Source of the DNA: Candidatus Peregrinibacteria bacterium CG10_big_fil_rev_8_21_14_0_10_36_19
Lineage (GTDB): Bacteria > Patescibacteriota > Gracilibacteria > UBA1369 > LOWO2-01-FULL-3
DNA length: 64,000 bases
Direction: 5' to 3'
Assembly (NCBI GenBank): GCA_002772535.1
Contig: PFDP01000014.1
Span: 227,481 to 291,480 of the forward strand
The translations under genes were made by a program, and so were the position numbers. The notes under the pieces were generated by a model. The model worked only from the letters and a program-made list of their open reading frames with translations. It did not search any database and was not told the origin of the DNA. Below, piece by piece: positions 4,802-39,251 of this stretch. Positions within the stretch are counted from its first letter, which is position 1; each line of letters opens with the position of its first letter.

Positions 4802-4826
4802 AAAAAGTTTAGGTTAAAAGCTTATG

Positions 4827-4854: not shown

Positions 4855-4889
4855 GCAAAGCAAACAAGTACACCTACCCCGCACTACTA

Positions 4890-4918: not shown

Positions 4919-4937
4919 TACAGCTAATAACAATATT

Positions 4938-6362
4938 ATGAACACACCAAACAACACCTTTAAGATAATTCCCCTACTAGCCATTATTCTCGTAATTTCA
5001 GGGTGCTCACTTGGAGAAGAAAAAATTGTAGAAGAAAAAATATCAAGAACAGATGAGTCCATAGAATCATCAACAGAGAATTTAAAAATAGTAGAAACAA
5101 TTCAAACAAAAAACTTCACACCAAACCTCAATATAACAGCAAATGGAACGGTCGAATCTGAAGAAATTACCATTGTACAGCCAGAAATTGCCGGAAGAAT
5201 TACTAATTTAAAAGTAAAAATTGGTGATGTCGTTAAAGAAAATCAAATACTAGCAACACTTGGAGACTCTCTCTCAACAGATGTTTCAGACATCCAAAAC
5301 CAAGCATCACAAAATGCACTCGAAATTAGCAAACAAGCACAAGAGCTTACAGAGTATTCAACAATTCAAAGCATGAATTTAGCACAAAGAAATTTAAAAC
5401 TTTCTGAAGAAGCTTACAAAAATTCATACCAAAACATAATAAATACACAAAACGCATTCGAGCTTCAATATGACCAAGCAAACATAACAATAGATAACGC
5501 CGAATTAGCCTACGACCAAGCAAAAAAAGCATACAAAAATGCCACTGACGCAACAAAATCACAACTAAAACTACAAAGAGACCTAGCAGAAAATCAACTT
5601 GAACAAGCAGAAACAGCACTAGATCAATTGAATGCAAATTTCTCATCACAAATGAGCCAATTGGAATACGCTATGACAGCAGCAGAAACACAATACCAAA
5701 ACGCTCAAACACAAATCGAAAGCACATATGCAAACTTAAGTCTTCAAAAACTACAAAGTGAATCACAACTAAATCAAGCCCAACAAGGGGCTTCAATATC
5801 AAGAGCAAACTCAAACAGAAAACAAATCACAGCACAAATAAGCGGAACAATTACAAAAGTAAATGTAAAAGAAAACAACCTTGTAACACCAGGACAAGCA
5901 ATTATTGAAATTCAAAACACTAAAAACTTAGTAGTAAAAACATATATTAGCGCTGAAAATGCAGCTTTAATAACCAAAAATGACACAGTAACAATCCAAA
6001 CATCTGGCAAAAAATTACAAGGAAAAATTAGCTACATAGCCACAGTACTAGACCCCCAAACTAAAAAAGTAGAAGTAAAAATCAGTCTACCTAAAGCAAA
6101 TGTAATAGTTGGAGCTGAAGCAAAAGTAATATTCGAACCAAAAACTCAAAACCCACTAGTACCACTAAATGCCGTTTCAATAGTAAATGGTAAACATGCC
6201 CTTAAAGTCTTAGAAGATAACAAAGTAGAAATAAAAGAAGTTACTTTAGGAAATTTACTTAATGAGTATGTTGAAATTTTAGAAGGAATTACACCAACAG
6301 ACGAAATAATAATCACAACAAACACTTTTCTAGACGAAGGAGAAACTGTAAAAAAGCAATAA
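4938..6362 (+). CDS. RND-type efflux adaptor (membrane fusion) lipoprotein
   Basis: From ATG 4938 the product is about 474 residues. The start is moved from 4824 because a consensus promoter lies at 4890-4918 and because the protein then begins with a proper lipoprotein signal (IIPLLAIILVISGC, lipobox ISGC). Next come the first half of a biotinyl-lipoyl-like domain (VVQPEIAGRI...GDVVKENQILATLGD), a long Gln/Asn/Ala-rich coiled coil, the second lipoyl half (AQISGTITKVNVKENNLVTPGQ), a beta-barrel domain and a membrane-proximal domain. This is the AcrA/HlyD adaptor architecture. It links an RND pump, encoded directly downstream with no gap, to the cell surface. No outer-membrane channel gene is nearby. 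Confidence 0.9.
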   Translation: MNTPNNTFKIIPLLAIILVISGCSLGEEKIVEEKISRTDESIESSTENLKIVETIQTKNFTPNLNITANGTVESEEITIVQPEIAGRITNLKVKIGDVVKENQILATLGDSLSTDVSDIQNQASQNALEISKQAQELTEYSTIQSMNLAQRNLKLSEEAYKNSYQNIINTQNAFELQYDQANITIDNAELAYDQAKKAYKNATDATKSQLKLQRDLAENQLEQAETALDQLNANFSSQMSQLEYAMTAAETQYQNAQTQIESTYANLSLQKLQSESQLNQAQQGASISRANSNRKQITAQISGTITKVNVKENNLVTPGQAIIEIQNTKNLVVKTYISAENAALITKNDTVTIQTSGKKLQGKISYIATVLDPQTKKVEVKISLPKANVIVGAEAKVIFEPKTQNPLVPLNAVSIVNGKHALKVLEDNKVEIKEVTLGNLLNEYVEILEGITPTDEIIITTNTFLDEGETVKKQ

Positions 6363-9300: not shown

Positions 9301-9428
9301 TGGCACTTACAAACGAATTCTGGGCAGGATTAGGATTCTCACTAGTGTTCGGACTAGCATGTGCCACAATACTTACCCTAATTGTGATACCTACTTTGTA
9401 TTACATGTTTGAAAAAAAGAACTCATAA
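6363..9428 (+). CDS. RND family efflux transporter (AcrB/HAE-like)
   Basis: This 1021-residue pump has the internally duplicated RND layout. TM1 lies near the N-terminus (PVTWLIILGIIISG), followed by a large extracytoplasmic loop with PREIQPEINIP and PGANPSDIE. TM2-6 include GLMVDTAIVIMEGI (TM4, proton-relay Asp). The second half repeats the pattern with a second loop, and GVVVNDAIVLIDRI falls in TM10. The length matches AcrB/MdtB-type pumps (about 1020-1050). It starts on the base after the adaptor stop codon, so the two form a translationally coupled operon. The substrate cannot be read from the sequence. An RND pump is notable if the host lacks a classical outer membrane. Confidence 0.93.
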   Translation: MKTPFFINRLPVTWLIILGIIISGAYSIKTIPREIQPEINIPIAAVTVALPGANPSDIESLITEPLEKSISNTEEIKKLTSTSTLGLATIVVEFNANADIDKAIQDLKDKVDLAKSELPEDATDPNVIRAKANETAIISFSLIGNRPLYELTKIAEDLQDSLEAHPNISKARISGAQKKIIEVEINQAKAESYGLNINQIIQLIKFSNYNLPLGIISTDKLNYSINVDSRYQSIEDIKNITILPNIYLKDVASVTESHNTQQVTSRLSIDGKKSKNSLSIQVFKKDKSNVITTVDDAKEIVKNFPLEKDIQIVVSNDLSEQIRQDLGVLTNNGIQTTILIIVMLFLALGLTEGLLAGLSIPLTLLSTITIISAAGMTINSLTLFSMVIAVGLMVDTAIVIMEGIHDNMKSGKSSKEAAINAIQTYQWPLIAGTLTTVFAFFPMLLVSGIVGQFLKSLPITISAALFSSLFISLTVIPAIAGKTMKGRNLANKSSILEPLFHKAGSIFQRLISKILTSRLARLTVILTSIILLIASFILPISGALKVEMFPKTDFRYFIINIEAPKGLVLSETEKIVQTVEEKLYKVPEIESFLSIIGTKDGIVQTDLVEFSGGGNSNLANITVNLVEEKDRSEKSYVIADRIRTELSKINTAKVTVRELTEGPPSDSPVAVKIVGKDTEKLRKISNDFQKMLKEIPGTQNITTTLQDGLNQFTFKLDQDKLSKYSLSGLEVSNLIRTSLQGREAATVTLNEEDLSIYVKYDLPKINDFTNANIETIKNFQITSRTGEQVSFGELAEIKFTTGLQKIDHEEQERIIKVKSDIEKDANAIDITTQFQEKVNSYKLDKGYRVEFGGDTQDVQESFQDLFRSMIIGVILIAFTLVLIFNSLKQPFIILLTLPLALIGVFPGLMSIGLALSFPAFLGVVALAGVVVNDAIVLIDRINNNRKEGMEFTQSIAEAGNARLQPIIMTSITTIAGILPLALTNEFWAGLGFSLVFGLACATILTLIVIPTLYYMFEKKNS

Positions 9429-23989: not shown

Positions 23990-25134
23990 TGCAAAAACTA
24001 AACAGAACATTACTATTTATAAACCTCTTCGCAATACAAGCGTACTTAATTCGCTTTGAAATTTTCACCTACCCCACAAACCTACAAGAAATACTTATAT
24101 CTCTTAACTGCCTAACCTTTCTATCAACTCACAAAGGACTACCAAATCTCAAAAAATACTGGATTATATGGAGCCTTATTATTTTAAGCGGACTTTCAAT
24201 AGCAACTACAGACATCATCAACCAATTAGACTTATTTAGACATCTCAAATTTTTAGCATTTGGATCAGCTTTAACATACATATTCTGCGAAACATTGAAC
24301 AATAAAAATGAACAAGAAAAAGGAATTCAAATTGCTATATATGGCGCGCTAACTTTCGGCATTTTTTCAGCACTCTACAACCTTTTTGGCTTTAATGCCG
24401 CTTACGATCACAGACTACTCGGCCCACTAGATGCAGCAGTATACCTAGCATTTTATTTAGCACCATTTTTCATCTACTCAACAATATCAGCTTTTGAACA
24501 AAAAAATAGATCGCAAATAATTATAAGCACAATTCTTGGAGCACTACTAATAGCGACCTTATCAATGGGAGCGATTGCGGGAAGCTTCATATGTATAAGT
24601 CTTTACCTACTTAACCGCGCCAATAAAAAAACAAAAATTATACTATCAACAATTGCCACAATTATTTTTGTATCAATTTTTTATACAAAAATATTACCAA
24701 CAATTCAAACAGAATACTCAAGCCTAGACGAAAGAGGACAAATATGGCAAACCTCAGCTTACCTTTTAGAGAAACAAAAAAACCTCATAACAGGAGTTGG
24801 ACTTGGGCAATTCCAAGAAAACTACGCGCAAAGTGTAAAATCAGTACTAGGCAAAGAACCACTAGATTATTTTGTCCTACAGCCACACAATATTTTTCTT
24901 CTTTTCATATTCAACTACGGAATACTAGGATTATCCCTATTACTAACACTCATCGTCCTCAATATAAAATCAAAAAGCATATATAAATACATCGCATTCT
25001 ATTTTCTAATTCACGGTTTAATAGATACACCCATCTTCAAAAACGATATCCTTTTCCTATTTATACTTTTCAACACTCTCAGTTTAAACCCGAAACTAAA
25101 TCTCTCAAAACAGCTTCCGGATCAGAAGATTTAG
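23989..25134 (+). CDS. O-antigen ligase / polymerase-like membrane protein
   Basis: The product of about 381 residues has ten or more hydrophobic segments. A central extracytoplasmic loop contains SLDERGQIWQTSAYLL and GVGLGQFQENYA, then PHNIFLLFIFNYGILGLSL. The 'G.G.g.F' and 'pHN.fl......Gi.G' pattern is the signature of the Wzy/WaaL (O-antigen ligase) superfamily, which polymerises or transfers lipid-linked glycans on the outer face of the cytoplasmic membrane. It may act downstream of the WecA-like transferase at 20720. Its last 56 bases overlap tpiA on the opposite strand. Start 23989 is chosen from the position of the -10 box. Confidence 0.8.
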   Translation: MQKLNRTLLFINLFAIQAYLIRFEIFTYPTNLQEILISLNCLTFLSTHKGLPNLKKYWIIWSLIILSGLSIATTDIINQLDLFRHLKFLAFGSALTYIFCETLNNKNEQEKGIQIAIYGALTFGIFSALYNLFGFNAAYDHRLLGPLDAAVYLAFYLAPFFIYSTISAFEQKNRSQIIISTILGALLIATLSMGAIAGSFICISLYLLNRANKKTKIILSTIATIIFVSIFYTKILPTIQTEYSSLDERGQIWQTSAYLLEKQKNLITGVGLGQFQENYAQSVKSVLGKEPLDYFVLQPHNIFLLFIFNYGILGLSLLLTLIVLNIKSKSIYKYIAFYFLIHGLIDTPIFKNDILFLFILFNTLSLNPKLNLSKQLPDQKI

Positions 25135-25738
25135 TAACACCCGAAGCTAAAAGCACACCACTGGCACCAAACTCAACTGCCAAACGAACATCCTCAGCAT
25201 CCTTTACACCAGCACCAACCAAAACTTTGTCATCACCAATATACTGAACAGCCCTCTTAATTATATCGGCTTCAGCCTTAGAAACAGATATATCACCCCC
25301 TATAAGCTCAGGAGGCTCTACAGCCAACAAATCTGGCCCATATGGCAAAATTTCTTTTGCTCTTTCTGGTGTATCAGCACACACAACAACAAACAATCCA
25401 GCCTCTTTAGCCAATCTAATACTCTCTTTCAACACATCATCACTCACAGGCTTTTCTGCATGATTCAACAAAGCACCGTATGCACCACACTTTTTAACCA
25501 AATCAGGAACAACAGACCCCGTACCGCTTCCATATTCTAAATTATCAACATGCTGTGCAAAAACAGGAATAGAAACCGCCTTGCACACAGCAGCTAAATC
25601 AATTGCATTTACAGCTATAGCAATATTTGCACCTGTCTCACTAGCAACTTTCTCATGAATCTTCGCCAAAGAAACAGCAGCCTCTCCAACGGCATTTTCG
25701 TAAACTTTAAAGTTAACTAATATAACTGGTAATTTCAT
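25079..25738 (-). CDS. tpiA: Triosephosphate isomerase, archaeal type
   Basis: The enzyme interconverts glyceraldehyde-3-phosphate and dihydroxyacetone phosphate. At about 219 residues it is roughly 30 shorter than bacterial TIM (about 250) and has the archaeal TIM pattern: LPVILVNFKVYENA at the N-terminus, FAQHVDN, the catalytic His in LLNHAEKP, the catalytic Glu in AVEPPELIGG and the phosphate-binding VGAGVKDAEDV and GVLLASGV. Start ATG 25738 is chosen over 25753 because a promoter (TTGTCT, 16 bp, TATATT) ends 6 bases before it. The gene ends in TGA and overlaps the convergent ligase gene by 56 bases. Horizontal transfer from archaea, or ancient sharing, is the likely origin. Confidence 0.92.
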   Translation of the reverse strand: MKLPVILVNFKVYENAVGEAAVSLAKIHEKVASETGANIAIAVNAIDLAAVCKAVSIPVFAQHVDNLEYGSGTGSVVPDLVKKCGAYGALLNHAEKPVSDDVLKESIRLAKEAGLFVVVCADTPERAKEILPYGPDLLAVEPPELIGGDISVSKAEADIIKRAVQYIGDDKVLVGAGVKDAEDVRLAVEFGASGVLLASGVTKSSDPEAVLRDLVSGLN

Positions 25739-25744
25739 ATTAGA

Positions 25745-25772
25745 AATATACACGTTTTTTCCACCCAGACAA
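25745..25772 (-). promoter_or_regulatory. tpiA promoter, predicted leaderless
   Basis: Minus-strand TTGTCT (25767-25772), 16 bp, TATATT (25745-25750), then 6 bases to ATG 25738. It lies back to back with the giant-gene promoter, with one base between the two -35 boxes. Confidence 0.65.
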
Positions 25773-25773
25773 A

Positions 25774-25802
25774 TTGACTTTTATGCATAGACATGATATA
25801 AT
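25774..25802 (+). promoter_or_regulatory. Strong promoter for the giant two-gene operon
   Basis: TTGACT (25774-25779), exactly 17 bp, TATAAT (25797-25802). The leader of about 25 bases (TTTTTTAAAAAAAC...) has no Shine-Dalgarno motif before ATG 25835. Confidence 0.8.
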
Positions 25803-25834: not shown

Positions 25835-28800
25835 ATGTTCAAAAAGATCTTTAAACAAAGTGAAAAAGAAAACAGACTAATATACCAAAATCCTGAAGAA
25901 GGAGCGAATTTAGCAAAGTCACAAAAGGCTGAAGAAACAATCGATAAAGACCACGACAAAGCAAGGGAAGAAGTGGAAAAAAAGGCCACTGAAGAACGCG
26001 CAGAACTTGCAAAAAAAGTCTCTGAATCAATTAAAGATCCAAACAAATATGCAATTTCAAGTCTTGAAAGAAGTATTGGAAACGACATCAAACTAAGAAA
26101 AAAAGACGAAAAAACTTACATACTAACAAGAGATAATCAAGATCTCCCATACGAAGTTGAATTTTCAAAACTAAAAACTGGCTTTTACTTAAGAAAAGTT
26201 GAAAATGGAACAGTAATTTTTCAAGAAAAAATACAAACTGGCCAAATAAAAAAATCTCAAATTTATAACGAAATTAAAGACACCATCTTAAAGATCGAAA
26301 AAGCCAAAGAAGAAGAAAAAAGAAAAGCAGCAGGTTTTGATATTGAAGAAAAATCTGAAAAAACACCAGTAACAGCAGACGCAATAGAGCCAATCAGCCC
26401 CCAAGAAACAGCCCAAACAACAAAAACAGAAAAACCAAGTGAGCCAAAATTAAATGAAAAAGCTCAAGCAGAATTTGATAAAGCTAAAAAAACGATCACA
26501 GATAAATTAGGAAAAGGAGTAACAATAGAAAATCAAATTCGTGAATTATCGAATTCAGAACATACAACTTTCTACATAACAAGAGATGGAGAAAACATTC
26601 CATTTGCAATTCAATTTAACAGAAGAAATTACGAAAAAATTAGAATTATTAAACTAACAAAAGAGGAAGGAAAACTAAAAATTAAAAAAGGAACCTCAGA
26701 AATGAGCGCACAATTAAGCGATAAATCAGAGATCTTTAAAGAAGTTAAAAAATATGTAGAACAAACTGGATCTGTAAAAGCAACGGCAGAAGAATTAGAA
26801 ATAAGAGCATTAGACATCGCAAAAAGAAAAGAACTTTTAGCAAAAATGCCAAACATCATCTTAGAAATGGCTCACAAAGTAGATCAAAATTTTGGCTACA
26901 GCGATCCAATTAAAATTGAAGAAGATGCAAATTTTCAAAAAATACAAATTTTCCATGCTGGCACATTTACAGGAATCACTGTTGAAATAGACAAAAAAAA
27001 TCCAACAGATGTAACATTTACATCACTAAGATCAGATCGTCCCCTATTTGCAAGATTCCAAGTAGAAAAAATCAATACAGACTCAATCACAAAATACGAA
27101 GAAAATGTATCAAATCATTTTAAATTAATTTTTGATTCTCTTTACCCAGGAGCTGAAAATGAACCATCATCAAATGGATTAAACACTCTTTCAGAAATGC
27201 TTCTTACAAAAGCAGATGAAAAAGAAAAAACACCTGCTAAAGAAGACGCAGCTTACGAATATCACAGCATAGATGCCGAATCAGGAAGCCCTGAAAGAAG
27301 AAAATTAAACATCGAATCTTTATACAAATTAAAACAAAAACACCTACAAGAATTCATCACAAAATTTGAAAATTTTGCCAACGCACAATCAAAAACAAAC
27401 AACGATAATAGAAAAATCACAATTTCAAAAGACACCTACAACGGAACAAGCAGACAAACAATCTCTATAGATGGAAAAGTAAGTCCATATTTCCTAGACA
27501 TTTACACAACATACGATGCAGCAGAATCTAAATTTGAAACTAAATTTAACATTTCAAAAAAAGAAGAAGCCTCAGAATTATATGATGCAGAAAATGGTCA
27601 AAATGAAAATTATTTAAAAGAACAATTTTCAAAAGTTTTAGATTCAGTAATAGATGAAAGACCAGTTGAAAATGAAACTGAAACAATCTCAGAACTAGAA
27701 TCAAAAGGAATTATTATAAATGGAACACCAGAAAATTTAACAAGACAAAATGTTAAAGATCTAAAAAATGCGTACAAAAAATTAGACGAAGCAATTAAAG
27801 AAAAAACAAATGTTGTTGATATAGAAAAAGAACTACAAAACACAAAGTACACACTAGAAAATATTCACCGTACAAATGAATCACTAAATAATATTTCACT
27901 AACATTTGGTGAATTAAAACTAAATTGGACACCTGAAACAGGATTTGGACCAAAAGAAGAAACAAGAGAAACTCTCAACAAAATTAAAAAAGCACAACTT
28001 CAAAATGAAGAACAAAAAAAGACATTTGATGCATTAAGTACAACAGCTGAGCGTACACAAAAAAGATTAGAACTTAAAGAAGACAAAAAACTTGGATATG
28101 TAATTAATTTTAGTGAAAAAACAAAAGAAGAATTTACACTTCACCAAAGCATCACAACACTTAACGAAGGTGTAATTAGAAATGAATGGAAAAATATTGA
28201 AAACCATAAAAGGGTTGAGATGTTACTTACAAATGAGCCATTCCTTTTAAATGAAAAAGAAATAGGACTCGTAATTTCAAAATTGATCAAAAACAAAAAA
28301 ACACTAAGTTTTTCAGACATCTTAAAAAACTTAAATTTCAAAAATTTCGATCACGACATTCTCCCAAGAGATATAGAAAAAGATCCAAAAAAATTCTTAG
28401 ATTTTTACAAAAGTTTATCTTACGAAAATAGACTACAAGCAAAACAGTTAACAGTTCTTACAGAAATAATCGAAGCCTCATTAAACTTACTTGAAGCTCT
28501 AGGAGAATTAAAATTCACAAACCATCCAGAATTTATCAAACAAAGAGAAGCCTCACTAAATCCAGAAGTAACAAGAGAAAATATTGCAATTGTTAGAGGT
28601 CTTGCGAAATTAACAGAAACTTCAGAACTTTCAGAAAGTGAAACAGATAAAAGTGGAAATTGGGAAAGATTTAAAACATGGTTAACAGGAGAACAAGAAG
28701 ACATCAACAATCTTACAATGGCGGACATGAATGGTAATACCGCTACATTCGATCGTGGTAATTTTAGAAGATATTACAGCCCTGCAGCCGCAGTAAAAAT

Positions 28801-31800
28801 TATCACAAACACAAAAGGACTTTACGAAGATTTAAGTAGACCAAAAAAATTAGATTCTCAAAAAGTAACAAAAGAAGTTAACAGATTAATAACACTTGGA
28901 GCATTAAATAAATTTATTGCCGAACAAGGTGAATCAAAAATATTTGATGTAATTAACGAAATAAATGAAAGTGAACACTCACTTCAAAGACAAGAATACA
29001 ATCTAGAAACATACAAAGAAGATTTAAAATATATCAAACAAGATAGTGCTTTAACAAAAGAACTTTATCGCGACAAAGAAGCTCAAATTAAAAACACAGA
29101 AAGACAAATAGAAGAATTAGAAACAAAAATATCTAAACTAAAAAGTAGAGCTGAAATGCTTTTCAAAAAAATTGCAGAAAAGGAAAATATTTCACTATTT
29201 GATGTAATAAAAAATCCAAGTCTTTTAAATAAATTAAGAGCAAAATATTACAGACCAAAACAGTCAACTACAGAAATACTAGCAAGCAAAGAATTTAAAG
29301 AGTACTTAGAAAAACATAAAATAACAGACATCAGAGATTTAAACAGTCTAACACAAGAACAAATAATGGCTTTCCAAGCCGGGTTTATTATTGATCAAAA
29401 ATCTCAATTCGACCAAAAAATTGAAGAGGGTAAAAAACTGGAAGCAAAACATCCAGCATTCAAAGACCTAATTATAAAACTTAAAGAATCAGGATTATCT
29501 AATGAAGAAATAGAGAAAATCCAAACAACTTCTCTTGGAATGGCTGGAGTAGAATTTAGAGATGGAAAATTTAATGGTGCAATGTTAGGTAAGAAATTTG
29601 ATCTTGGAAACGGTAAAAGTTTTGCACTTGGTCTTGGTGCCAACGGAGAAGGAACAATCTATGGAGTAGGATTTAGAGTAGAAATTTATGAAGGAGAAAA
29701 AGTTACAAATAGTATTCTTACAGAAATTTCACTTTCAGGAATTACCCCAAATGCAGGTATAGGAATGCAACAAACAATTGCAATTTCAGACTCAGTAGAT
29801 CTTCATATTTTTGAAGGAGTTCGTTGGTCATGGGATAGCGTAATTCCAACACTTGGTGGAGGACTTGCCTTCTCATGGAACAAAGAAAGAGCACTCAAAA
29901 CAGCACTTGAAGACGAAAAAAATGCCAGCATTTATTCAGAAGCATGGAAGAAATTTACAACAATTGATAAACACGATACTCAATCAAGATATAATGCCAT
30001 CATGGCAATTCCACAAGCCAGAGCAACATTCCAAACTCTACAAGCTGCATATGGATTATCAAATGCACATGTAGTGAATATGGTGGAACAAAATGAAAAA
30101 GACATCAACGAAAAAGTAGAAAAAAATCTAAACGAACCTTGGTATAAAAATATCACATCAATTGGTATTAGCATGATAGGACCAGTGCCAATTCCAACTA
30201 TTGGAATTAGAATTGGAACAGCACATTTAGTAATTCCAAACAGAGTTGCAATGGCTCAAACATTGGAAAGAATTTCAGATGTTTCTATCAAAGCAAAACT
30301 AGAAGTTGCAATGGAAAAAGCCATTAAAGAAAGTGAAGCAGATGTACAAAAATTCACAAAAACAGCTCTAGATACACAAGAGGAATCAGGAGATATTATC
30401 GCAGGAAAAAACGGAGAGCTAATGATACTCACAGCATCAAGTTCAGTAAATCTAGAAGAACATTTTACAAAATTACACGAGCGTGAAATTCAAGAAATAG
30501 AACAACGCAACGGACTTTACAGACCAAACAAAGCTCTACAAGAAGCAGGTACAGAAATCCAACTTCTAAAAGGAACTGACAGAAGAATGGAGCTTTTAAT
30601 CTACAACTCCGAAGATAAAGATGTAGAAATTCACATCGACCCTACTCTAAAAAACTTATCAGTAGTAGTAGAAGGTGGACACATCTACTTAGACGGAAAT
30701 GCAAGAGACCTAATAATAACTCGCGAAAGATTTAAACTTCCTTTTAAAGGATCTAGATCAATGTCTAGCATGAGAGACATGATAGTAATTCGTCAAAGAG
30801 ATTCACTTCGTGGAGATAGAGACAGAACATGGATCACAGAAAACGAAGGAACTTTTGCACAAAAACTAGAAGATGAAGCAGGCTTTACAATCCAAAACGG
30901 TAATAGCTCAGAATTAGGACAAGACAACCTATACTATGCTGGAAGCGAAATAGAAAAAACTCGTACACCGGAATTAGAAAAACTTCGTCACAAAGAAGTT
31001 AAAGCAGTAATGGGTAGAGAATTTATTGAATCATATTCTGTAGACCAAGCGGCTCGTATCGAAGCAATAAAAAACAAACTAATAGACGGAAAAACTTACG
31101 ATAAAATGGAAGTTCGCCAAGAACTAAAAGATAGAGTAAGAGAATTGTATAAAAAAATTGAACAAGTTAAGCCTGCAGATAGAATAAAAGATGAATTAAG
31201 CAGAGCATTAGAAGCAAACATTGGCCATCCAAAACTTCTTGCGACATTCATTTCTCAAAGAGTTGAAATACAAGATTTAAACGAAAAAGAATTAAATTAC
31301 GGAATTAATCTTTTAAGAAACCTATACTTCACAACTATCTTCCCACAAAAATCACAAGAAAGAATTAGAGCTGCTAAAGAAAAAGTAAATAAAGTAAAAG
31401 AAAAACTAAATCCAAAAATCACACACACAGAATCGTTTGGACAATTTTCAATCGTAATAACAAAAGAACACAACAAAGAAACAACATATAAAATACTAGA
31501 CACAAAAGACAACAACCAAAATATTTTTGAAAACGGAAAATTAGACACAACTGGATACACAGAAGAACAAGTAAACACAATCAACGAAGCTTTAAACCGT
31601 CTAAAAGAAATCCGTGAAATATTAGAAACAAAAGAATTTACGATATATGTAGATGGAAAGGAAGAAAAACTTTCAGCTCAAAGCACTCAAATGCCAACAC
31701 TAAAAGCAATGGGCAAATTAGAAAACATGAGCTACTACATTACAAACAATAACGAAATTTTCATAGTAGACCATGCTGAGAAAAAAACATTTCAATTAGA

Positions 31801-33574
31801 CTCAAACACAAAAGAAGTAGAAGAAAAATACAAAGCAATTCTAGAACTAGCTAAATCTAGAACTACCCTACCAGCCCTAAACCACGCAGACCCGGAAACT
31901 CCACCAACAAAATCACAAAAAAGACGCCTAGAAAGACAACTTAAACAAGCCGAAACAAACCTTACAAAAGTAAAACAATCTATAAACAACACATTAATCA
32001 GAACAATTAATGGAATGGAAGTTGCCGGTAAAAAATCGGATAAAGGCAGAGCAAGCTTCATGATCGATGCTTTCGCACAAGCATTTGGAAGCCATAGACT
32101 AGCAACAAGACTTGCACTAAAAATTTATACACCACTAACTAAATCACTAGAAGATCCTAACTACGATTTCTCCAAAGAAGAAATCGCAACAGAAGGCCCA
32201 GGGAAAATTCCGGAAGGAGCAATACTAATGTCTGGATCACGCCTTTACACAGCAGAAACCAAAGAAGGTAAAAACTACACAAGATACAGCAAAGAAATAG
32301 AAAAATTAAAACAACTAAACAAAGATTCTCAATTTAAAATTGAAGGATCAGAAGCAAGCCTAGTCCAAGTTATGGAGCAAGAAGAAGCCCTCAAAAAACA
32401 AATAAATGAGCCTAAAGCTTCAATACAAAAAATTGAACAACAAATTAGTACAGCCGATTCAAAAGAAAAAGCAACACTACTAAAACAACTAAAAACTCTA
32501 AAGAGAATTGCTTCAATAAAAGAACGCGCACTTGCAAGAGTACAAAGAAAAATTGACGCTCTAGAAAAAACAATTGCAAAAGAAAGAGACAAAATAACAA
32601 GTCGTGAAACTCAAATTTTAGAAATTACTAAAAACAAACTATTCGAAAGTCCGGTTACAGTTACAAGAAAGAGAGAACCTGTAATGTCTGAAACTGTTAG
32701 CTACCAAACAACAGAAAAAGAAGATGGACTTGCTCACGAATTCGGATTCCTAAAAAACACAGTACACGAATATACAACAAATGATGAAAACTTAGAAAAC
32801 AGAGAACTAAGAAGAGCAATGCTTGAAGCCGCAAGCCCAATAGAAAGAGGTAACAAACCCGCAGAATTAATAAGATTTTTAAAATCAAAACTAGTACTAA
32901 AATTACTAGCAACTGGAAATGAAAATAATTACAACAGCGGCGCAATAATCGCACTCGAAACCGAAGAACAAAGAAAACTTGTAACAGAAGTATTCAAAGA
33001 TTCCTCACTGCTTATAAACAGCAAACCACACCAAGAAGCCGTAAAAGCATTCAGAGAAATTGTACTAAAAATCAGAGAAGCGGAACACAACGGCACAGTA
33101 TTAAATCTACCTGTAGAAACCCCTAGAGGAAAAATAATTCTTACAATCACACCTACATCAAAAGTAGTAGCTGGAGCATTTAGCAAATGTGCAAATGCAA
33201 GTTGGTATGTTACAGAAAGCGTAATAATTCAAGCTCACAGCGAAGCTGACGCAGCCAACATCAATACAGACCAAGTAGTAGCAGCAACAGAAGAATCAAA
33301 CGAAGTTATTGAAAACCAAACACAAAGAAAAGATATAGAAATTGGCGGCGCCGTAGCCTTTACAAGCTCACCGAAAGCAGCAGCAAAACCAGATCGCGCC
33401 CCAAGAAGAAAAACAGGAGAAACAACAAGACAATCAGGAAAACCAAGCAGCACAAATAGCCATGGTGGCGAAAACATCCCATCTCAATCAAGTGCCAATC
33501 AATCACCTAGACCAAGTACTCCAAAAAGTGGTATAAAAGGAGCAAGCAAAGAAAACACAAACGGCAAAGCCTAA
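25835..33574 (+). CDS. Giant protein of unknown function, 2579 residues
   Basis: I do not recognise this protein. It has no signal peptide and starts MFKKIFKQSEKENR, so it is probably cytoplasmic or exported by a non-Sec route. Residues about 65-155, 215-330, 345-445 and 510-615 look like four diverged copies of one alpha/beta unit: a helix, a strand pair such as KTYILTRDNQDLPYEVEF or TTFYITRDGENIPFAIQF, then a helix. Long Lys/Glu-rich coiled coils follow. Residues about 1235-1350 are glycine-rich amphipathic strands (GKSFALGLGANGEGTIYGVG), and 1440-1472 hold a hydrophobic strand patch (SIGISMIGPVPIPTIGIRIG). Another coiled coil spans about 2110-2260. The tail is basic and disordered (PDRAPRRKTGETTRQSG). 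It is co-transcribed with the secreted protein 2 bases downstream. Confidence 0.85.
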   Translation: MFKKIFKQSEKENRLIYQNPEEGANLAKSQKAEETIDKDHDKAREEVEKKATEERAELAKKVSESIKDPNKYAISSLERSIGNDIKLRKKDEKTYILTRDNQDLPYEVEFSKLKTGFYLRKVENGTVIFQEKIQTGQIKKSQIYNEIKDTILKIEKAKEEEKRKAAGFDIEEKSEKTPVTADAIEPISPQETAQTTKTEKPSEPKLNEKAQAEFDKAKKTITDKLGKGVTIENQIRELSNSEHTTFYITRDGENIPFAIQFNRRNYEKIRIIKLTKEEGKLKIKKGTSEMSAQLSDKSEIFKEVKKYVEQTGSVKATAEELEIRALDIAKRKELLAKMPNIILEMAHKVDQNFGYSDPIKIEEDANFQKIQIFHAGTFTGITVEIDKKNPTDVTFTSLRSDRPLFARFQVEKINTDSITKYEENVSNHFKLIFDSLYPGAENEPSSNGLNTLSEMLLTKADEKEKTPAKEDAAYEYHSIDAESGSPERRKLNIESLYKLKQKHLQEFITKFENFANAQSKTNNDNRKITISKDTYNGTSRQTISIDGKVSPYFLDIYTTYDAAESKFETKFNISKKEEASELYDAENGQNENYLKEQFSKVLDSVIDERPVENETETISELESKGIIINGTPENLTRQNVKDLKNAYKKLDEAIKEKTNVVDIEKELQNTKYTLENIHRTNESLNNISLTFGELKLNWTPETGFGPKEETRETLNKIKKAQLQNEEQKKTFDALSTTAERTQKRLELKEDKKLGYVINFSEKTKEEFTLHQSITTLNEGVIRNEWKNIENHKRVEMLLTNEPFLLNEKEIGLVISKLIKNKKTLSFSDILKNLNFKNFDHDILPRDIEKDPKKFLDFYKSLSYENRLQAKQLTVLTEIIEASLNLLEALGELKFTNHPEFIKQREASLNPEVTRENIAIVRGLAKLTETSELSESETDKSGNWERFKTWLTGEQEDINNLTMADMNGNTATFDRGNFRRYYSPAAAVKIITNTKGLYEDLSRPKKLDSQKVTKEVNRLITLGALNKFIAEQGESKIFDVINEINESEHSLQRQEYNLETYKEDLKYIKQDSALTKELYRDKEAQIKNTERQIEELETKISKLKSRAEMLFKKIAEKENISLFDVIKNPSLLNKLRAKYYRPKQSTTEILASKEFKEYLEKHKITDIRDLNSLTQEQIMAFQAGFIIDQKSQFDQKIEEGKKLEAKHPAFKDLIIKLKESGLSNEEIEKIQTTSLGMAGVEFRDGKFNGAMLGKKFDLGNGKSFALGLGANGEGTIYGVGFRVEIYEGEKVTNSILTEISLSGITPNAGIGMQQTIAISDSVDLHIFEGVRWSWDSVIPTLGGGLAFSWNKERALKTALEDEKNASIYSEAWKKFTTIDKHDTQSRYNAIMAIPQARATFQTLQAAYGLSNAHVVNMVEQNEKDINEKVEKNLNEPWYKNITSIGISMIGPVPIPTIGIRIGTAHLVIPNRVAMAQTLERISDVSIKAKLEVAMEKAIKESEADVQKFTKTALDTQEESGDIIAGKNGELMILTASSSVNLEEHFTKLHEREIQEIEQRNGLYRPNKALQEAGTEIQLLKGTDRRMELLIYNSEDKDVEIHIDPTLKNLSVVVEGGHIYLDGNARDLIITRERFKLPFKGSRSMSSMRDMIVIRQRDSLRGDRDRTWITENEGTFAQKLEDEAGFTIQNGNSSELGQDNLYYAGSEIEKTRTPELEKLRHKEVKAVMGREFIESYSVDQAARIEAIKNKLIDGKTYDKMEVRQELKDRVRELYKKIEQVKPADRIKDELSRALEANIGHPKLLATFISQRVEIQDLNEKELNYGINLLRNLYFTTIFPQKSQERIRAAKEKVNKVKEKLNPKITHTESFGQFSIVITKEHNKETTYKILDTKDNNQNIFENGKLDTTGYTEEQVNTINEALNRLKEIREILETKEFTIYVDGKEEKLSAQSTQMPTLKAMGKLENMSYYITNNNEIFIVDHAEKKTFQLDSNTKEVEEKYKAILELAKSRTTLPALNHADPETPPTKSQKRRLERQLKQAETNLTKVKQSINNTLIRTINGMEVAGKKSDKGRASFMIDAFAQAFGSHRLATRLALKIYTPLTKSLEDPNYDFSKEEIATEGPGKIPEGAILMSGSRLYTAETKEGKNYTRYSKEIEKLKQLNKDSQFKIEGSEASLVQVMEQEEALKKQINEPKASIQKIEQQISTADSKEKATLLKQLKTLKRIASIKERALARVQRKIDALEKTIAKERDKITSRETQILEITKNKLFESPVTVTRKREPVMSETVSYQTTEKEDGLAHEFGFLKNTVHEYTTNDENLENRELRRAMLEAASPIERGNKPAELIRFLKSKLVLKLLATGNENNYNSGAIIALETEEQRKLVTEVFKDSSLLINSKPHQEAVKAFREIVLKIREAEHNGTVLNLPVETPRGKIILTITPTSKVVAGAFSKCANASWYVTESVIIQAHSEADAANINTDQVVAATEESNEVIENQTQRKDIEIGGAVAFTSSPKAAAKPDRAPRRKTGETTRQSGKPSSTNSHGGENIPSQSSANQSPRPSTPKSGIKGASKENTNGKA

Positions 33575-33576
33575 AA

Positions 33577-36500
33577 ATGAAAAACTCACACTCACTCCTA
33601 AAAAATAGCTTCCTAAGCCTCCTTATTATAGGAGTGTTAACTTCAACTGCCTACGCACATGGTCCGGAAAACCACCTACAATATTGTAAAGAAAAATATT
33701 TAGATGCTTGGTTTGAAGATAATCAAGGTAAAGCATCAGGAGCATGTGATCCAAATAATCCACCAAATATCGAAGCGGGTATTACTCGTGAATACGGAGG
33801 TACAACAAAAAATTATCCATTCGGACTTTGCTATCCAAGTTTTAACAACTATACAGATTCAGTAGACAAAGCCTTCGACACACCAACAGGTATGGACCCA
33901 TATGGAACACAACCTCCCCTATTTAAGGATGAAAGAAATTTTTTCAAAGTAAGAAAATGGAGCAAAGACGGTCAAACTGCAAAATGGGTAGATTATAAGG
34001 ACGAAGTAGAAGTTGATTACGGTGACACTCTAACATTCATGCTCTACATACATAATGATGGAGATCCATGTTTCAACGAAGGAAACGCAATTCCAAAAAA
34101 TAAATTTTACTCAAACTGGAACACAACATCAAGAAATACAAAAGTAAAAGTTAGCCCATCTCCGGAAACAAAAATTTCAAATGCTACATCTTTTAACGCA
34201 TCAATCTGGTCAGACAACGCTAGAAATGCCAAAGGTGAAATTGCACCTACAATTAACGGAGTAGTTATAAAACCAAAGGATAACAAAGAATTAACGCTAA
34301 AATACAAAGTAGATTCAGCAGCATACACGGATTATGATCAAAACTGGAACTTCACAGAACACGACATTTCAAATCCACAAAACCTTTTCACAAACAACGG
34401 ACTCCCACTAACAACACTACTCAACGGAAGTCCTAAATCTGCCATAGGCGTACAATACGCATCAGAACCATATATAGGAGTTATAGTTTTCTCAGTGCAA
34501 GTAGAAGAAAAACCGGTAGTAAAAACACCTATCTGTAAAAATTTAACAGCCGATTTAAGAAAGGTAACCATAAACAACAGCCAAGCATATAAAATAAACT
34601 ACATAGTAGATGCAGAACCTGGTGCAGATGTTTCAAAAGTTACATTCACATCAACAGAGAATGGAACTTTTTATACAGACGTACAAACAGCCGATAACCA
34701 AACAAAATACTCAGCAATAGGAAAAAAACAAATCACAGTAGATAACGGTCAAAATATTTACTATTTACCTACAAACACAACAGACGATGTTAACATACAA
34801 GTTTACATCACAGACAAATGTAAGGCAGAAGTAAAAATCACAGGAACTCCTATAATACCAACTTGTGAAGCCACTACGGTTACAATGAGAGATCTAGAAA
34901 AAAACACAGAGGTTTCATGTACACTTAACAAAGAATATTCAGTAGAAGCAAAATTCTACGAAGACGCCGCAAAAACAAAAGAAATATCAGCAGCAAACAC
35001 TATTGTAGAATGGAGCTCAACAGACCCAAATGGACTCTTCTACAACCCCCTACTTTATGCATTCAACACAATACTTGGAAAAGAAACCCAAGGACTTAAA
35101 GGCCCAATTCAAGGACCAAGTACAATGAAATACGTAGGACGCGGAACTTTAAATGCAAAACTAGTGAGCATAAACGGCAAACCATATAATGACATAAGAG
35201 GCACAAATGTTTGTGCTTTCTCAATCCCAGAATGTACAAACTCATGCAGAAAACTAAACCTTTCATATGATACAACTCCAGAAGTAGGCAAAACATCAAA
35301 TCTAAAATTCGAAGCGTTTGATATATTTGGCCAAAGATTACCAAGGTCAACAAAAATCATTGTAAAAACCAACACAGATGCAACACTTACCAGTCAAGGC
35401 GAATCAACAACAAATGCAATTCAAACAACTATAGATAAATCAGTTGAATTCAAAAACTCAACCACTCTTGGAAAAATAACTGCTGAAGTTTCAAAAGAAG
35501 ACCCTCTATATAATGAATATTGTAAAGAAGAAGTCTCACTACAAGAACAACTAACATGTAGCTATATAACTGCAACAGTCGATGATCAATTCGCGCCAAC
35601 AATAAAGGCTGGAAATTTCTACAAAATTAAAGCAAAAAGTACATTCTCAAAAATTGGTGTAGAAAAAAGCATCACAATGAAAACATCTCACGGATTATTT
35701 ATTGTACCAAAAACATACAACCAACCATCAGTAGATCAAGCAATTTTATCTTTTGCAATAAACACTGCAAATCAATACAAAGCATCACTTACTTCAAAAG
35801 ATATAAACACAAGCTACGACAATCAATACATCATAGTTGGAAAAGAAGTAACAGTTAAAGATGAAGACACTGTATTGTTCATACCTTTTATAGACATTAC
35901 TTTAGAAGAAGGAATCAATGCATTAACTATTCAAACAACTGGAAGATTAGAACCAGAGTGTATGAAACAGTTCAATATCTACCCTACAGATCAAGTTTGT
36001 AAAAATCTTAGCTTTACAACTTTCCCAACAAAATTTGATCCAACTCAAGACATGGTAATTCGTCTAAATGGATCAACACTTGGAGATTTCAAAGGTAACC
36101 TAGAATTCAAAACAACAAATGGAAAATTCTACTATCCTCAAAAAGAAAGTGAAAAAGCATCAACAAAAACATTTATAATAGAAGAAGCAATATCAGGAAT
36201 TATCTACACAGGAGGTCAATACCAAGACACAGTAGAAATTAAAGCCGTCGGAGATCTTTCAAGCAACTGTGCATATTCATTCACTAATGCGCCAGCTGAG
36301 GTAAGTTGTACAGAAATGACTCTAGAAAAACCATCATCATCATGGAAAGAAGAAGATGTAGATGATGAAGAACAAGAATTCATACTAAACATTAAAACTA
36401 CACCATCAGGATACGAAAATAGCCTAAAATACAAATGGCAAGCAAACGGAGGCAATTTCCAAAACGAAACAACAACCTCACCAACAAACACACTCAAAAA

Positions 36501-38265
36501 TATTGACTTCTCAGATGATGTTTCAATATCAGTTTCTGCAATCAACCCAAACGGATCTACAAGCACAGCGTGTCAATTAACAAAACACCTAGAATCAATT
36601 GATGACATTGATGCAGACATCGAAAAACTAGTTTACGATGTTCAAAATAAAAAATGGGCAAACACAATTAATGTAGGTGGTAAAAAAGAAACCTCAACAG
36701 CAAAAGGTAACTTTGTGAGCTGGCTAAGCAGCAAATATCAATACATAACTTACTTGGCAACTTTTGATCCAGGAACTGCAAAATCAGCCGAAATTTGGGA
36801 ACAAGAACTTAGAAATGGTTACATAACAGCTTCAAACACAAAACGAGGTAAACTAAACTACATCTCATTAGCCATCGTTGTAGAAAGCAACAAAGGCAAA
36901 AAATACACAGCCTATGTTAGCGATAAATTCGATGAAAATCGCTACAACAATCAAAAAATTAACGGCAAAAGCACATTTAGAGATTTTTCAAACTATTCAA
37001 AAAATGAGGACTACTTCATCAAAAACTTTGAATGTGGAAAAAATGACAACAATGAAATTTGTATAGAAAATATAGAAGACCTAGAATCAGACTTCCAAAA
37101 AGGAAGACGTATTCAACTTGGAAACACCGCAAGTGCCTCAAAAATCCATTTCATATACCAAACACAAAATGACACAGCTGTCACAGAACAGTTCTGTAAA
37201 ACAATCATTAAACAATTCCAAGGATGCGGTGAAGAATTCAACAACACAATCAACTTTACAGCCTACAGAAGAGACAACCATTCAGATGAACTAAACGACG
37301 GAAAAGACAGCGCAAAAGCCATCGCAATCTGCCCATACATACTTACACGCCAAGGTGGAGATGTATTCTTCCATAATGCATTAGACACAGGGATAGACGT
37401 AAGCGCATGTTACAAAGTAGAAAATTGTGAAGGACCATGTATTAAACGTGAACAACCAAAGAAAAATGTAATTACATCAACAGGTTCTGGAAACATTGAA
37501 GACATCATTCTTTCAACACCAACCCATGATGTATGTAAACTATCCAATGATCCAAACTCAAGCCTGCCTTCTGCATATAAAGATGTACTTAAAAATTTCT
37601 CTAGTTCAGTTTGTGAATTCAAAGCAGATGTAGCAGCAATATGGACAGAAAAAAACATCAACAAAGCTATAAAATCAAATATTGAAAAGATATCTAGATT
37701 TACATCAAACAAAGGTTCTCACACCTTCAAAAGTCCAAGTGTAGTTAAATTCTCTAACGGAGTATTTGTACAAGATGGTGGCACATTAACAATAGACGGG
37801 TCACCAAACTACTCAATCAATTCAAATGAACCAGCTGCCCAAACATACATTGTTAAAAATGGAGATTTAGTAATTAAAAGCGATATAATTTACAACGACC
37901 AAAATGTAGATCCAAAGAAGCCTAAATCTATTCCATCAGTAGCATTTATCGTTATCAATGGAGACATAAAGATTGATAATAATGTAAGCCGTATAGATGC
38001 AATCCTTATGTCTGTAGATTCAGAAAACAATGGCAAAGGCAAAGTTGTTTCACTACAAAATTCACCTACATTCGACAAAATACTAAACATCAACGGAAGT
38101 TTAATTGGTGACGTAGCAAACCTATTTGAAAACAGACAAGCAATTGGAGATCCATTAAAAGACCAAAGTTCAATCACTATCAAATACGACGAACGTATAT
38201 TACTCAATACCCCACCAGGTCTTGGCGAGCTAATTGATATAAATCAACTAAAAATCGCCAACTAA
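33577..38265 (+). CDS. Giant secreted protein with cysteine-paired Ig-like repeats
   Basis: The 1562-residue protein begins with a Sec signal peptide (SFLSLLIIGVLTSTAYA, cleavage after AYA). After an N-terminal domain of about 310 residues come six Ig/PKD-like beta units of roughly 100-150 residues. Each opens with a Cys strand (CKNLTADL, CEATTVTM, CRKLNLSY, CSYITATV, CKNLSFTT, CTEMTLEK) and closes with another Cys near the end (DKCKAEV, NVCAFSI, EYCKEEV, PECMKQF, SNCAYSF, TACQLTK), which suggests one disulfide per unit. The C-terminal domain (YIVKNGDLVIKSDI, FIVINGDIKI, ILNINGSLIGD, YDERILLNTPPGL) is a beta-solenoid-like end. No anchor is visible. A cell-surface or pilus-associated adhesin is likely, but the function is unknown. 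Confidence 0.85.
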   Translation: MKNSHSLLKNSFLSLLIIGVLTSTAYAHGPENHLQYCKEKYLDAWFEDNQGKASGACDPNNPPNIEAGITREYGGTTKNYPFGLCYPSFNNYTDSVDKAFDTPTGMDPYGTQPPLFKDERNFFKVRKWSKDGQTAKWVDYKDEVEVDYGDTLTFMLYIHNDGDPCFNEGNAIPKNKFYSNWNTTSRNTKVKVSPSPETKISNATSFNASIWSDNARNAKGEIAPTINGVVIKPKDNKELTLKYKVDSAAYTDYDQNWNFTEHDISNPQNLFTNNGLPLTTLLNGSPKSAIGVQYASEPYIGVIVFSVQVEEKPVVKTPICKNLTADLRKVTINNSQAYKINYIVDAEPGADVSKVTFTSTENGTFYTDVQTADNQTKYSAIGKKQITVDNGQNIYYLPTNTTDDVNIQVYITDKCKAEVKITGTPIIPTCEATTVTMRDLEKNTEVSCTLNKEYSVEAKFYEDAAKTKEISAANTIVEWSSTDPNGLFYNPLLYAFNTILGKETQGLKGPIQGPSTMKYVGRGTLNAKLVSINGKPYNDIRGTNVCAFSIPECTNSCRKLNLSYDTTPEVGKTSNLKFEAFDIFGQRLPRSTKIIVKTNTDATLTSQGESTTNAIQTTIDKSVEFKNSTTLGKITAEVSKEDPLYNEYCKEEVSLQEQLTCSYITATVDDQFAPTIKAGNFYKIKAKSTFSKIGVEKSITMKTSHGLFIVPKTYNQPSVDQAILSFAINTANQYKASLTSKDINTSYDNQYIIVGKEVTVKDEDTVLFIPFIDITLEEGINALTIQTTGRLEPECMKQFNIYPTDQVCKNLSFTTFPTKFDPTQDMVIRLNGSTLGDFKGNLEFKTTNGKFYYPQKESEKASTKTFIIEEAISGIIYTGGQYQDTVEIKAVGDLSSNCAYSFTNAPAEVSCTEMTLEKPSSSWKEEDVDDEEQEFILNIKTTPSGYENSLKYKWQANGGNFQNETTTSPTNTLKNIDFSDDVSISVSAINPNGSTSTACQLTKHLESIDDIDADIEKLVYDVQNKKWANTINVGGKKETSTAKGNFVSWLSSKYQYITYLATFDPGTAKSAEIWEQELRNGYITASNTKRGKLNYISLAIVVESNKGKKYTAYVSDKFDENRYNNQKINGKSTFRDFSNYSKNEDYFIKNFECGKNDNNEICIENIEDLESDFQKGRRIQLGNTASASKIHFIYQTQNDTAVTEQFCKTIIKQFQGCGEEFNNTINFTAYRRDNHSDELNDGKDSAKAIAICPYILTRQGGDVFFHNALDTGIDVSACYKVENCEGPCIKREQPKKNVITSTGSGNIEDIILSTPTHDVCKLSNDPNSSLPSAYKDVLKNFSSSVCEFKADVAAIWTEKNINKAIKSNIEKISRFTSNKGSHTFKSPSVVKFSNGVFVQDGGTLTIDGSPNYSINSNEPAAQTYIVKNGDLVIKSDIIYNDQNVDPKKPKSIPSVAFIVINGDIKIDNNVSRIDAILMSVDSENNGKGKVVSLQNSPTFDKILNINGSLIGDVANLFENRQAIGDPLKDQSSITIKYDERILLNTPPGLGELIDINQLKIAN

Positions 38266-38271
38266 ATCTGC

Positions 38272-38277
38272 TATAGT
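38272..38277 (+). promoter_or_regulatory. -10 box for holA, predicted leaderless
   Basis: TATAGT lies 8 bases before ATG 38286. The ORF-track TTG start at 38277 falls within this box. The -35 region is weak. Confidence 0.5.
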
Positions 38278-38285
38278 TGCCTTCC

Positions 38286-39251
38286 ATGAAATCAATATTT
38301 CTCTTACATGGAGATGACAACTTTTCATCAAGCCAAAAGCTCAAATCTTGGCGTGATGGTTTTGTACAAAAATACAACTCAGAACCTGAGATTTTTGATG
38401 GTAAAAAATTAGATCTATCACAATTCGAAACTAACATTGAAGCATACCCATTCCTAAGCGAAAAAAGACTAGTAATAATCAAAAACTTTTTTGAAGACAG
38501 ATCAGCCGAAGATGGCAAAAGAGTAGCAGAATCTCTAAAAAGAGTTCCAGATTTCTGCATCCTGATTTTCCATGAAAATGGCAAAGCAGATAAAAGAACT
38601 GCACTATACAAAAAAATAGAAAAGGAGGGAAAAATAGAAGAATTTAAAGAAAAGTCTCCATTAGAAATAGCTAAATGGGCAGCAGAAAGAGCTACAAAAA
38701 AAGGCATCTCCCTAGCAATAACACAAGCAAATTACTTTGCAGAACATTGTGGAAGTAACCTCTGGCAACTAGAAAATGAAATCGACAAACTAGCACTACA
38801 CAAAGGACCAATCACAAACGAAACTATAGACACTATAACCACCCCCTCACTCACAGCATCAATATTTCGAGTAACAGATAAAGTTGCCGAACAAAACGCC
38901 CGAGAAGCTCTTAAAACACTCAAGACATTACAAGACAACGGAGAAGATATGATTAAAATCCTTTTCATGATAGTAAGACATTTTAGAATACTCATACAAA
39001 TCCACGATCTCATTCATCATAAAGAGTCAACTTCATCAATTGCCTCAAAACTTAAACAACCTCCATTTGTAATACAAAAAGGAGTACAACAATCACGCAA
39101 CTTTACATATGAAAGACTAAAACAAATATACGAAGAATTACTCAAAATCGATACTGATTTTAAAACAGGAAAAATCAAAATCCTCAAACAAGACAACAGA
39201 GAACTACATCTCGCAATCGAAAAATTTATAATCAATTGCTGCCAAAAATAA
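38286..39251 (+). CDS. holA: DNA polymerase III delta subunit
   Basis: HolA is the clamp-loader subunit that opens the beta clamp. Starting at ATG 38286 (MKSIFLLHGDDNFSS), the product is 321 residues, normal for the family (about 320-345). The N-terminal LHGDD and a RRLVIIKN-like strand (KRLVIIKNFF), the middle LEIAKWAAERATKKGISL and CGSNLWQLENEIDKLAL, and the C-terminal collar helices (LFMIVRHFRILIQI) follow the HolA pattern. The Walker B-like region carries no ATPase motif, as expected for delta. The gene probably has its own leaderless promoter inside the end of the giant operon. No terminator is obvious between them. Confidence 0.92.
   Translation: MKSIFLLHGDDNFSSSQKLKSWRDGFVQKYNSEPEIFDGKKLDLSQFETNIEAYPFLSEKRLVIIKNFFEDRSAEDGKRVAESLKRVPDFCILIFHENGKADKRTALYKKIEKEGKIEEFKEKSPLEIAKWAAERATKKGISLAITQANYFAEHCGSNLWQLENEIDKLALHKGPITNETIDTITTPSLTASIFRVTDKVAEQNAREALKTLKTLQDNGEDMIKILFMIVRHFRILIQIHDLIHHKESTSSIASKLKQPPFVIQKGVQQSRNFTYERLKQIYEELLKIDTDFKTGKIKILKQDNRELHLAIEKFIINCCQK

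What the first reader, a model, noticed from the sequence alone, without database searches (positions are those of the whole stretch)
25835..38265. Uncharacterised two-gene giant operon: a 2579-residue non-secreted protein paired with a 1562-residue secreted repeat protein
The two genes are 2 bases apart behind a near-consensus promoter (TTGACT-17-TATAAT) and use 12.4 kb, one fifth of the window, in an otherwise very economical genome. The first has no signal peptide but mixes repeated alpha/beta units, coiled coils and glycine-rich amphipathic strands. The second has a clear signal peptide and disulfide-type Ig repeats. The pairing suggests one machine spanning inside and outside, for example a surface appendage, a host-attachment apparatus or a cytoskeletal element with an external partner. 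I recognise neither family.
Basis: partly seen in the sequence, partly recalled or inferred. Interest (0 to 1): 0.65.

Follow-up and report, generated by a model that had tools for sequence, protein, structure and literature searches.

The report
Conserved giant inner–surface protein pair
Two giant genes of unknown function sit side by side in this small, probably host-dependent bacterium; one makes a long disulfide-rich protein sent to the cell surface and the other an equally large protein with no export signal, and the pairing has been kept across several deeply separated groups of its class, which suggests they work together.

Summary
A (25835-33574, 2579 aa) and B (33577-38265, 1562 aa) lie 2 bp apart behind an extended -10 promoter in a Ca. 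Peregrinibacteria genome. Neither matches Pfam, NCBIfam, PHROGs or PDB by sequence. The pairing is strongly conserved: between TPI and HolA across the order, and as pairs of the same plan in three further families that recode TGA. Of 60 A genes whose 3' neighbour I could read, 59 are followed by a signal-peptide gene, directly or after one short gene. B is a secreted, Cys-rich rod of Ig-like domains with a variable middle (adhesin-type modules in some relatives) and a conserved beta-solenoid C-terminus. A has no signal peptide and is Cys-poor; its only Cys lies in an invariant C-x-N motif. Its middle is predicted, at low confidence, as a porin-like up-and-down beta-barrel. In the order A usually starts with a tag, K-E-x-R-[FL]-[VI]-[FY], also seen on other proteins without Sec signals. 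Most likely A and B form one envelope or attachment system, with B outside and A its inner or unconventionally exported partner. B's surface role is well supported; what A does is inferred.

The parts
25774..25802 (+). Promoter TTGACT-17-TATAAT with extended -10 (TG)
   Evidence: best-scoring site, 11/12, directly upstream of A; the count of such sites in the region equals chance
25835..33574 (+). Gene A, 2579 aa, no signal peptide, one Cys
   Evidence: homologues in 58 of 89 genomes of the order by profile
25865..25885 (+). N-terminal tag KENRLIY of A (residues 11-17)
   Evidence: conserved in most A proteins of the order and at the N-terminus of other non-Sec proteins
28037..28954 (+). A residues 735-1040, conserved region, predicted mostly helical in the part modelled
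   Evidence: conservation profile; model
29552..29902 (+). A residues about 1240-1356: Gly-rich amphipathic strands, predicted beta-barrel meander
   Evidence: model made on the G012 homologue, pLDDT about 40-65 here
30356..30448 (+). A residues about 1508-1538: further beta hairpin after a helical insert
32687..33334 (+). A C-terminal domain (residues about 2285-2500) with the C-x-N motif
   Evidence: pLDDT mostly 80-93 in the homologue model; conserved
33188..33196 (+). Codons of the invariant Cys2452-x-Asn2454
   Evidence: 22/22 Peregrinibacteria A proteins and 13/13 recoded A-like proteins listed, plus G475
33335..33571 (+). Low-complexity C-terminal tail of A
   Evidence: 88-132 residues follow the Cys in all 22 aligned members; P/G/S/T/N about 49% over the last 90 residues
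33577..38265 (+). Gene B, 1562 aa, secreted, 28 Cys
33577..33657 (+). Signal peptide of B (residues 1-27)
   Evidence: sequence; an N-terminal hydrophobic signal-like stretch in all B homologues listed
33658..37104 (+). Rod of Ig-like beta domains of B, variable between lineages
   Evidence: model from residue 363 on, fold matches to Ig-chain proteins, adhesin modules in relatives
37105..38262 (+). Conserved B C-terminal region ending YDERILLNTPPGLGELIDINQLKIAN, beta-solenoid
25079..25753 (-). Triosephosphate isomerase, fixed upstream neighbour in the order (not part of the system)
38277..39251 (+). HolA (DNA polymerase III delta), fixed downstream neighbour in the order (not part of the system)

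Best explanation
A and B are two parts of one cell-envelope system of Peregrinibacteria and some recoded families of the same class, most likely used for surface attachment or host contact. Shown by sequence: the genes are inherited together as an A-to-B pair; B carries a signal peptide and is predicted as a disulfide-rich Ig rod with a conserved beta-solenoid C-terminus and a variable middle; A carries no Sec signal or TM helix and is Cys-poor. Inferred: B is displayed on the wall and its variable modules bind partners. A is made in the cytoplasm, may be sorted by its N-terminal KExRFVY tag, and works with B at the membrane through its amphipathic beta domain and its C-x-N C-terminal domain, as inner anchor or assembly factor or as an unconventionally exported partner.
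For: Fixed A-B pair in the order and pairs of the same plan in recoded families f166, f170 and f174; 59 of 60 readable junctions have a secreted gene after A. The lengths of A and B correlate (rho 0.51, p 0.010, not phylogeny-corrected), and their divergence correlates after correcting for HolA (r 0.46, Mantel p 3e-4). Cys content: median 0.17% in A against 1.87% in B. Adhesin-type or wall-binding modules in B relatives. Strand amphipathicity and barrel-like fold of A.
Against: No interaction or localisation data. The barrel is low-confidence (pLDDT about 40-65) and its fold matches have E of 0.2 or more. No wall anchor was identified in B itself. Orders f17-f21 of the class lack A at this sensitivity, so the system is not universal. 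One genome has A without adjacent B. Linked evolution may partly reflect two fast-evolving neighbours.
Confidence: 0.5

Rival explanations
1. A leaves the cell without Sec, directed by its N-terminal tag or its low-complexity tail, and inserts its porin-like beta domain into a membrane outside the cell, such as the outer membrane of a Gram-negative host, while B is the adhesin that brings the two cells together.
For: Top PDB fold matches of the A model are transmembrane beta-barrels; strongly amphipathic strands; Gly-zipper-like hydrophobic stretch in the hairpin of some members; a tag shared with other non-Sec proteins; relatives of this class attack Gram-negative hosts (PMC8080830).
Against: Fold matches are weak, amphipathic strands also fit soluble barrels, no export route is known, and the recoded A proteins read have no such tag.
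Confidence: 0.2
2. A is a cytoplasmic scaffold or regulator with its own role (for instance coiled-coil organisation of the cell), and B is an independent surface protein expressed with it for convenience.
For: A lacks export signals and is Cys-poor, with charge-rich, coiled-coil-like stretches.
Against: The pair is kept at different genomic addresses in different families, which argues for a functional link; A and B co-vary beyond HolA.
Confidence: 0.18
3. The two genes are merely syntenic neighbours in a conserved stretch of slowly rearranging genomes.
For: TPI, HolA and TrmB, which are functionally unrelated, share the synteny within the order.
Against: In the loci of G516 and G475 the pair is kept although the order's TPI-HolA setting is not. 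The gap is under 50 bp in most cases, and only one of 60 readable junctions lacks a secreted gene after A.
Confidence: 0.1

Closest known systems
Large Cys-rich extracellular proteins of Ca. Peribacter and giant surface proteins of Vampirococcus and a related epibiont (PMC4736985, PMC8080830, PMC13059738)
   Same: Giant, often Cys-rich secreted proteins proposed for attachment, in related Patescibacteria; B is of this general kind.
   Different: I found no mention there of a conserved two-gene pairing or of a non-secreted giant partner like A; identity with their listed proteins was not tested.
Intimin/invasin inverse autotransporters
   Same: A transmembrane-like beta-barrel plus Ig-like rod; weak fold matches to the intimin/invasin barrel for A and to the invasin rod for B.
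   Different: Here barrel and rod are on separate proteins, the barrel protein has no signal peptide, and no sequence match was found.
Giant attachment and gliding proteins of mycoplasmas (recalled, not tested)
   Same: Small-genome bacteria that combine inner and surface giant proteins at a contact structure.
   Different: No sequence relation found in Pfam or PDB searches.
DUF7305 module (PF23981)
   Same: A distant relative of the B C-terminal module passes the Pfam cut-off (L265).
   Different: B itself and its 28 aligned homologues do not match DUF7305.
Type I-secreted RTX giant adhesins
   Same: Giant proteins without N-terminal signal peptide.
   Different: No RTX or T1SS signature in A and no transporter genes beside it.

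Membership tests
Secreted surface adhesin/stalk (for B) | N-terminal signal peptide | tested here: met
   Hydropathy and sequence, all homologues listed
Secreted surface adhesin/stalk (for B) | Tandem Ig-like domains | tested here: met
   AlphaFold2 beta-domain chain and fold matches to Ig-chain proteins
Secreted surface adhesin/stalk (for B) | Recognised binding or anchoring domain | tested here: inconclusive
   SpaA, SdrD_B, MucBP and PG_binding_1 only in single relatives, not in the window's B
DUF7305 | Profile match over the curated cut-off | tested here: not met
   No DUF7305 match for B and its 28 homologues
Outer-membrane beta-barrel protein (for A) | Amphipathic beta-barrel fold | tested here: inconclusive
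   Low-confidence barrel, fold matches at E of 0.2 or more
Outer-membrane beta-barrel protein (for A) | Sec signal peptide | tested here: not met
   Absent in all A proteins examined
Outer-membrane beta-barrel protein (for A) | Outer membrane and BAM machinery in the cell | not tested
Inverse autotransporter (intimin/invasin) | Barrel and Ig rod on one secreted polypeptide | tested here: not met
   Two genes; the barrel protein lacks a signal peptide
Type I-secreted RTX giant adhesin (for A) | RTX repeats or T1SS domains | tested here: not met
   No such Pfam match in 22 A proteins
Type I-secreted RTX giant adhesin (for A) | Adjacent ABC/MFP transporter genes | tested here: not met
   Neighbours are TPI and HolA
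S-layer protein (for B) | Known S-layer domain by profile | tested here: not met
   None in Pfam; fold matches to S-layer chains are generic

The most novel reading that the evidence does not exclude
A contact apparatus ancestral to Gracilibacteria-type Patescibacteria: a giant Sec-independent protein carries a porin-like barrel that is deployed into a membrane, and its operon partner B is the surface adhesin. In Peregrinibacteria the giant is sorted by a previously undescribed N-terminal tag (K-E-x-R-[FL]-[VI]-[FY]) that marks a wider set of proteins using an unknown sorting or export route.
Probability: 0.15. Interest if true: 0.9.

Novelty: new variant of a known kind. Interest (0 to 1): 0.6.

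Why it matters
How predatory and episymbiotic Patescibacteria other than Saccharibacteria attach to or breach other cells is largely unknown. This locus is a conserved, testable target: a surface rod and a giant partner with an invariant C-x-N motif, kept both in Peregrinibacteria and in TGA-recoded families of the class. It also gives a handle on the many very large proteins without export signals in these genomes: in one related epibiont about half of the proteins over 1500 aa lack TM or signal peptide (PMC13059738), and Peregrinibacteria rank high for huge, unannotated proteins (PMC11573180).

Tried and rejected
1) Known family by sequence: Pfam, NCBIfam, PHROGs and PDB profiles gave nothing for A or B of the window. 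Matches of single A members to PdsO, MgtE_N and ketoacyl-synthase were set aside as isolated. 2) A 25,343-aa frame in G149 carrying the B module looks like an artefact of masked sequence: the next 19.9 kb read entirely as N. 3) The pair is not a general neighbour of HolA in the class: HolA loci of other families lack it, so the fixed address belongs to the order. 4) B module as a pilin part: proteins carrying it have ordinary N-terminal signal or anchor stretches; not supported. 5) Sequence repeats in A: only weak self-matches. 6) The 849-aa tagged protein of this genome is not a homologue of A, and the two orthologues that could be read show no tag (which stopped part-way). 7) The first class-wide search with the A middle region gave only one marginal hit outside the order; followed up, that hit revealed the recoded pairs. 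8) Viral fold library: no meaningful match. 9) The first mirror-tree run timed out and was repeated in shorter form.

Full report
Observation. Genes A (25835-33574, 2579 aa) and B (33577-38265, 1562 aa) are complete and 2 bp apart. An extended -10 promoter precedes A; the number of promoter-like sites in the region equals chance, so only its 11/12 score and its position speak for it. A has no signal peptide, no predicted TM helix and a single cysteine; B has a signal peptide and 28 cysteines.

Who it is. Named relatives recovered with the B C-terminus are labelled Candidatus Peregrinibacteria, Peribacteria or Gracilibacteria, with one labelled Nitrospirota.

Pair conservation in the order. The usual order is TPI(-) | A | B | HolA, often with an O-antigen ligase-like gene and a TrmB gene outside. 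A large gene sits at the A position even where its sequence is too diverged for BLAST. With a profile of the A middle region, 58 of 89 genomes of the order match; B homologues are found in 51 of 60 relatives. In family f8 a short protein of about 175 aa with an N-terminal anchor lies between A and B.

Pair conservation beyond the order. A marginal hit in G481, which reads TGA as an amino acid, led to an A-like gene of 1728 aa followed by a signal-peptide gene of 1342 aa, close to HolA. Twenty more genomes of that family match this A protein. The eleven further loci read all show C-x-N-E-S followed by a gene with a signal peptide. G516 (f174) and G475 (f170) have the same arrangement in a different gene context. 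The relation to Peregrinibacteria A rests on a profile-profile match in the beta region (P = 3e-7, probability 93%), on the invariant C-x-N and on the partner's similar C-terminus (hhalign P = 3.8e-4 for G481; PPxL-type ends and GD/GN-xxNL motifs in G516 and G475). This is convincing for a shared plan and weaker for full-length homology. A core profile built from both groups finds 81 of 353 class genomes, all in the order or in f166, f170 and f174. Members of each group trained that profile, so the tally shows distribution and is not independent proof.

Counting. Of 60 A genes whose 3' side was held, 59 are followed by a secreted protein, directly or after one short gene. The exception is G033 (L137), where HolA follows A directly; G033 has 7% estimated contamination.

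Linked evolution. Over 24 genomes the lengths of A and B correlate (rho 0.51, p 0.010, not corrected for phylogeny). Over 19 genomes the divergence of A and B correlates after regression on HolA (r 0.46, Mantel p 3e-4). Both are fast-evolving neighbours, so this is support, not proof.

What B is. AlphaFold2 of residues 363-1562 gives a string of all-beta domains, mostly pLDDT 70-90, and a C-terminal beta region of lower confidence that reads as a solenoid. Fold matches are generic Ig-chain proteins: macroglobulins, mastigoneme, S-layer, invasin, integrin. Six of 29 homologues carry DUF4215, and single members carry SpaA, SdrD_B, MucBP or PG_binding_1. The C-terminal module occurs in other secreted Patescibacteria proteins ending like YDxRxxxNxPPG, one of which passes the DUF7305 cut-off. 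B is therefore a surface rod with a variable outer part; what it binds is inferred.

What A is. There is no sequence match in Pfam, NCBIfam, PHROGs or PDB. AlphaFold2 of the G012 homologue (residues 480-1678) shows an eight-strand meander, a helical insert and a further hairpin at pLDDT about 40-65, then a C-terminal domain mostly at 80-93. Foldseek against PDB ranks transmembrane beta-barrels first, all at E of 0.2 or above; this is a lead only. The strands are strongly amphipathic, which does not by itself separate membrane from soluble barrels. The only Cys of the window's A is the invariant one.

The tag. A of the order usually begins with a short stretch ending in K-E-x-R-[FL]-[VI]-[FY]. 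In sequence not chosen for the motif, its core occurs 12 times in N-termini and once elsewhere, but 11 of those 12 are A homologues, so they are not independent. Independent support comes from a degenerate DNA pattern in 30 family genomes: 68 matches against 36 for the reversed pattern, and among matches lying in open frames of 100 aa or more in the loci fetched, 24 are within the first 60 residues and 2 are not. About 18 of these are proteins other than A, with no Pfam domain in the ten scanned. Codons differ, so the constraint is on the protein. The tag was not seen in the recoded A proteins whose start was read, nor in other code-11 orders sampled except a looser look-alike in L163. Its function is unknown; a sorting or docking signal is a guess.

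Most likely reading. One envelope system with B outside and A inside or exported by an unconventional route (0.5). A membrane-inserting exported A (0.2), an independent scaffold (0.18) and mere synteny (0.1) remain possible.

Literature. Peribacteria genomes are noted for large Cys-rich exported proteins that vary between strains (PMC4736985). Vampirococcus and a related epibiont carry giant surface proteins (PMC8080830, PMC13059738). Peregrinibacteria rank high for huge proteins with little annotation (PMC11573180). I found no description of this pair in the passages searched; most subscription papers and all supplements were out of reach.

Noticed in passing
window 25865-25885; L193:10448-12997; L209, L210, L215, L219, L223, L226, L230, L232, L242, L245, L253, L255, L256: An N-terminal motif K-E-x-R-[FL]-[VI]-[FY] followed by a Pro-rich stretch occurs on about 18 proteins other than A, without Sec signals or Pfam domains, in this family. 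It may be a sorting or docking tag.
   Followed up: partly
L242:1736-5098; L250:1-6691: Tagged genes can lie close together, e.g. a 207-aa and a 778-aa tagged gene in L242, and a 360-aa tagged gene followed by a 1868-aa gene starting MENRLIYKNSPPE in L250.
   Followed up: no
L193:10448-12997 (own genome C3:380448-382994): An 849-aa tagged protein is found in 25 of 30 family genomes as an unknown conserved family; the two orthologue starts that could be read show no tag.
   Followed up: partly
L144 and L149 (G048); G044:C13:58066: A homologues appear to reach about 7000 aa (G048) and 5600 aa (G044) open frames.
   Followed up: no
L170:6087-6947 and L278:7548-8270: In both recoded loci the gene before A is a small secreted protein ending KTGPExYxLxxL...RK, which resembles a sortase-type sorting signal.
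   Followed up: no
L068:12721-13257, L076:12101-12637, L127:5111-5641, L129:7087-7611, L132: In family f8 a short protein of about 163-178 aa with an N-terminal membrane anchor is inserted between A and B.
   Followed up: no
window 6363-9428 and 4824-6362: From its start sequence, a likely RND-type efflux transporter with a preceding possible membrane-fusion protein, unexpected for a bacterium regarded as lacking an outer membrane; no profile was run.
   Followed up: no
window 59140-64000 (-): A further large protein (at least 1619 aa) runs off the window end; not examined.
   Followed up: no
L145, L277 (G149:C2): A 25,343-aa open frame reported by a search lies in sequence that largely reads N, so it should not be taken for a giant gene.
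   Followed up: yes
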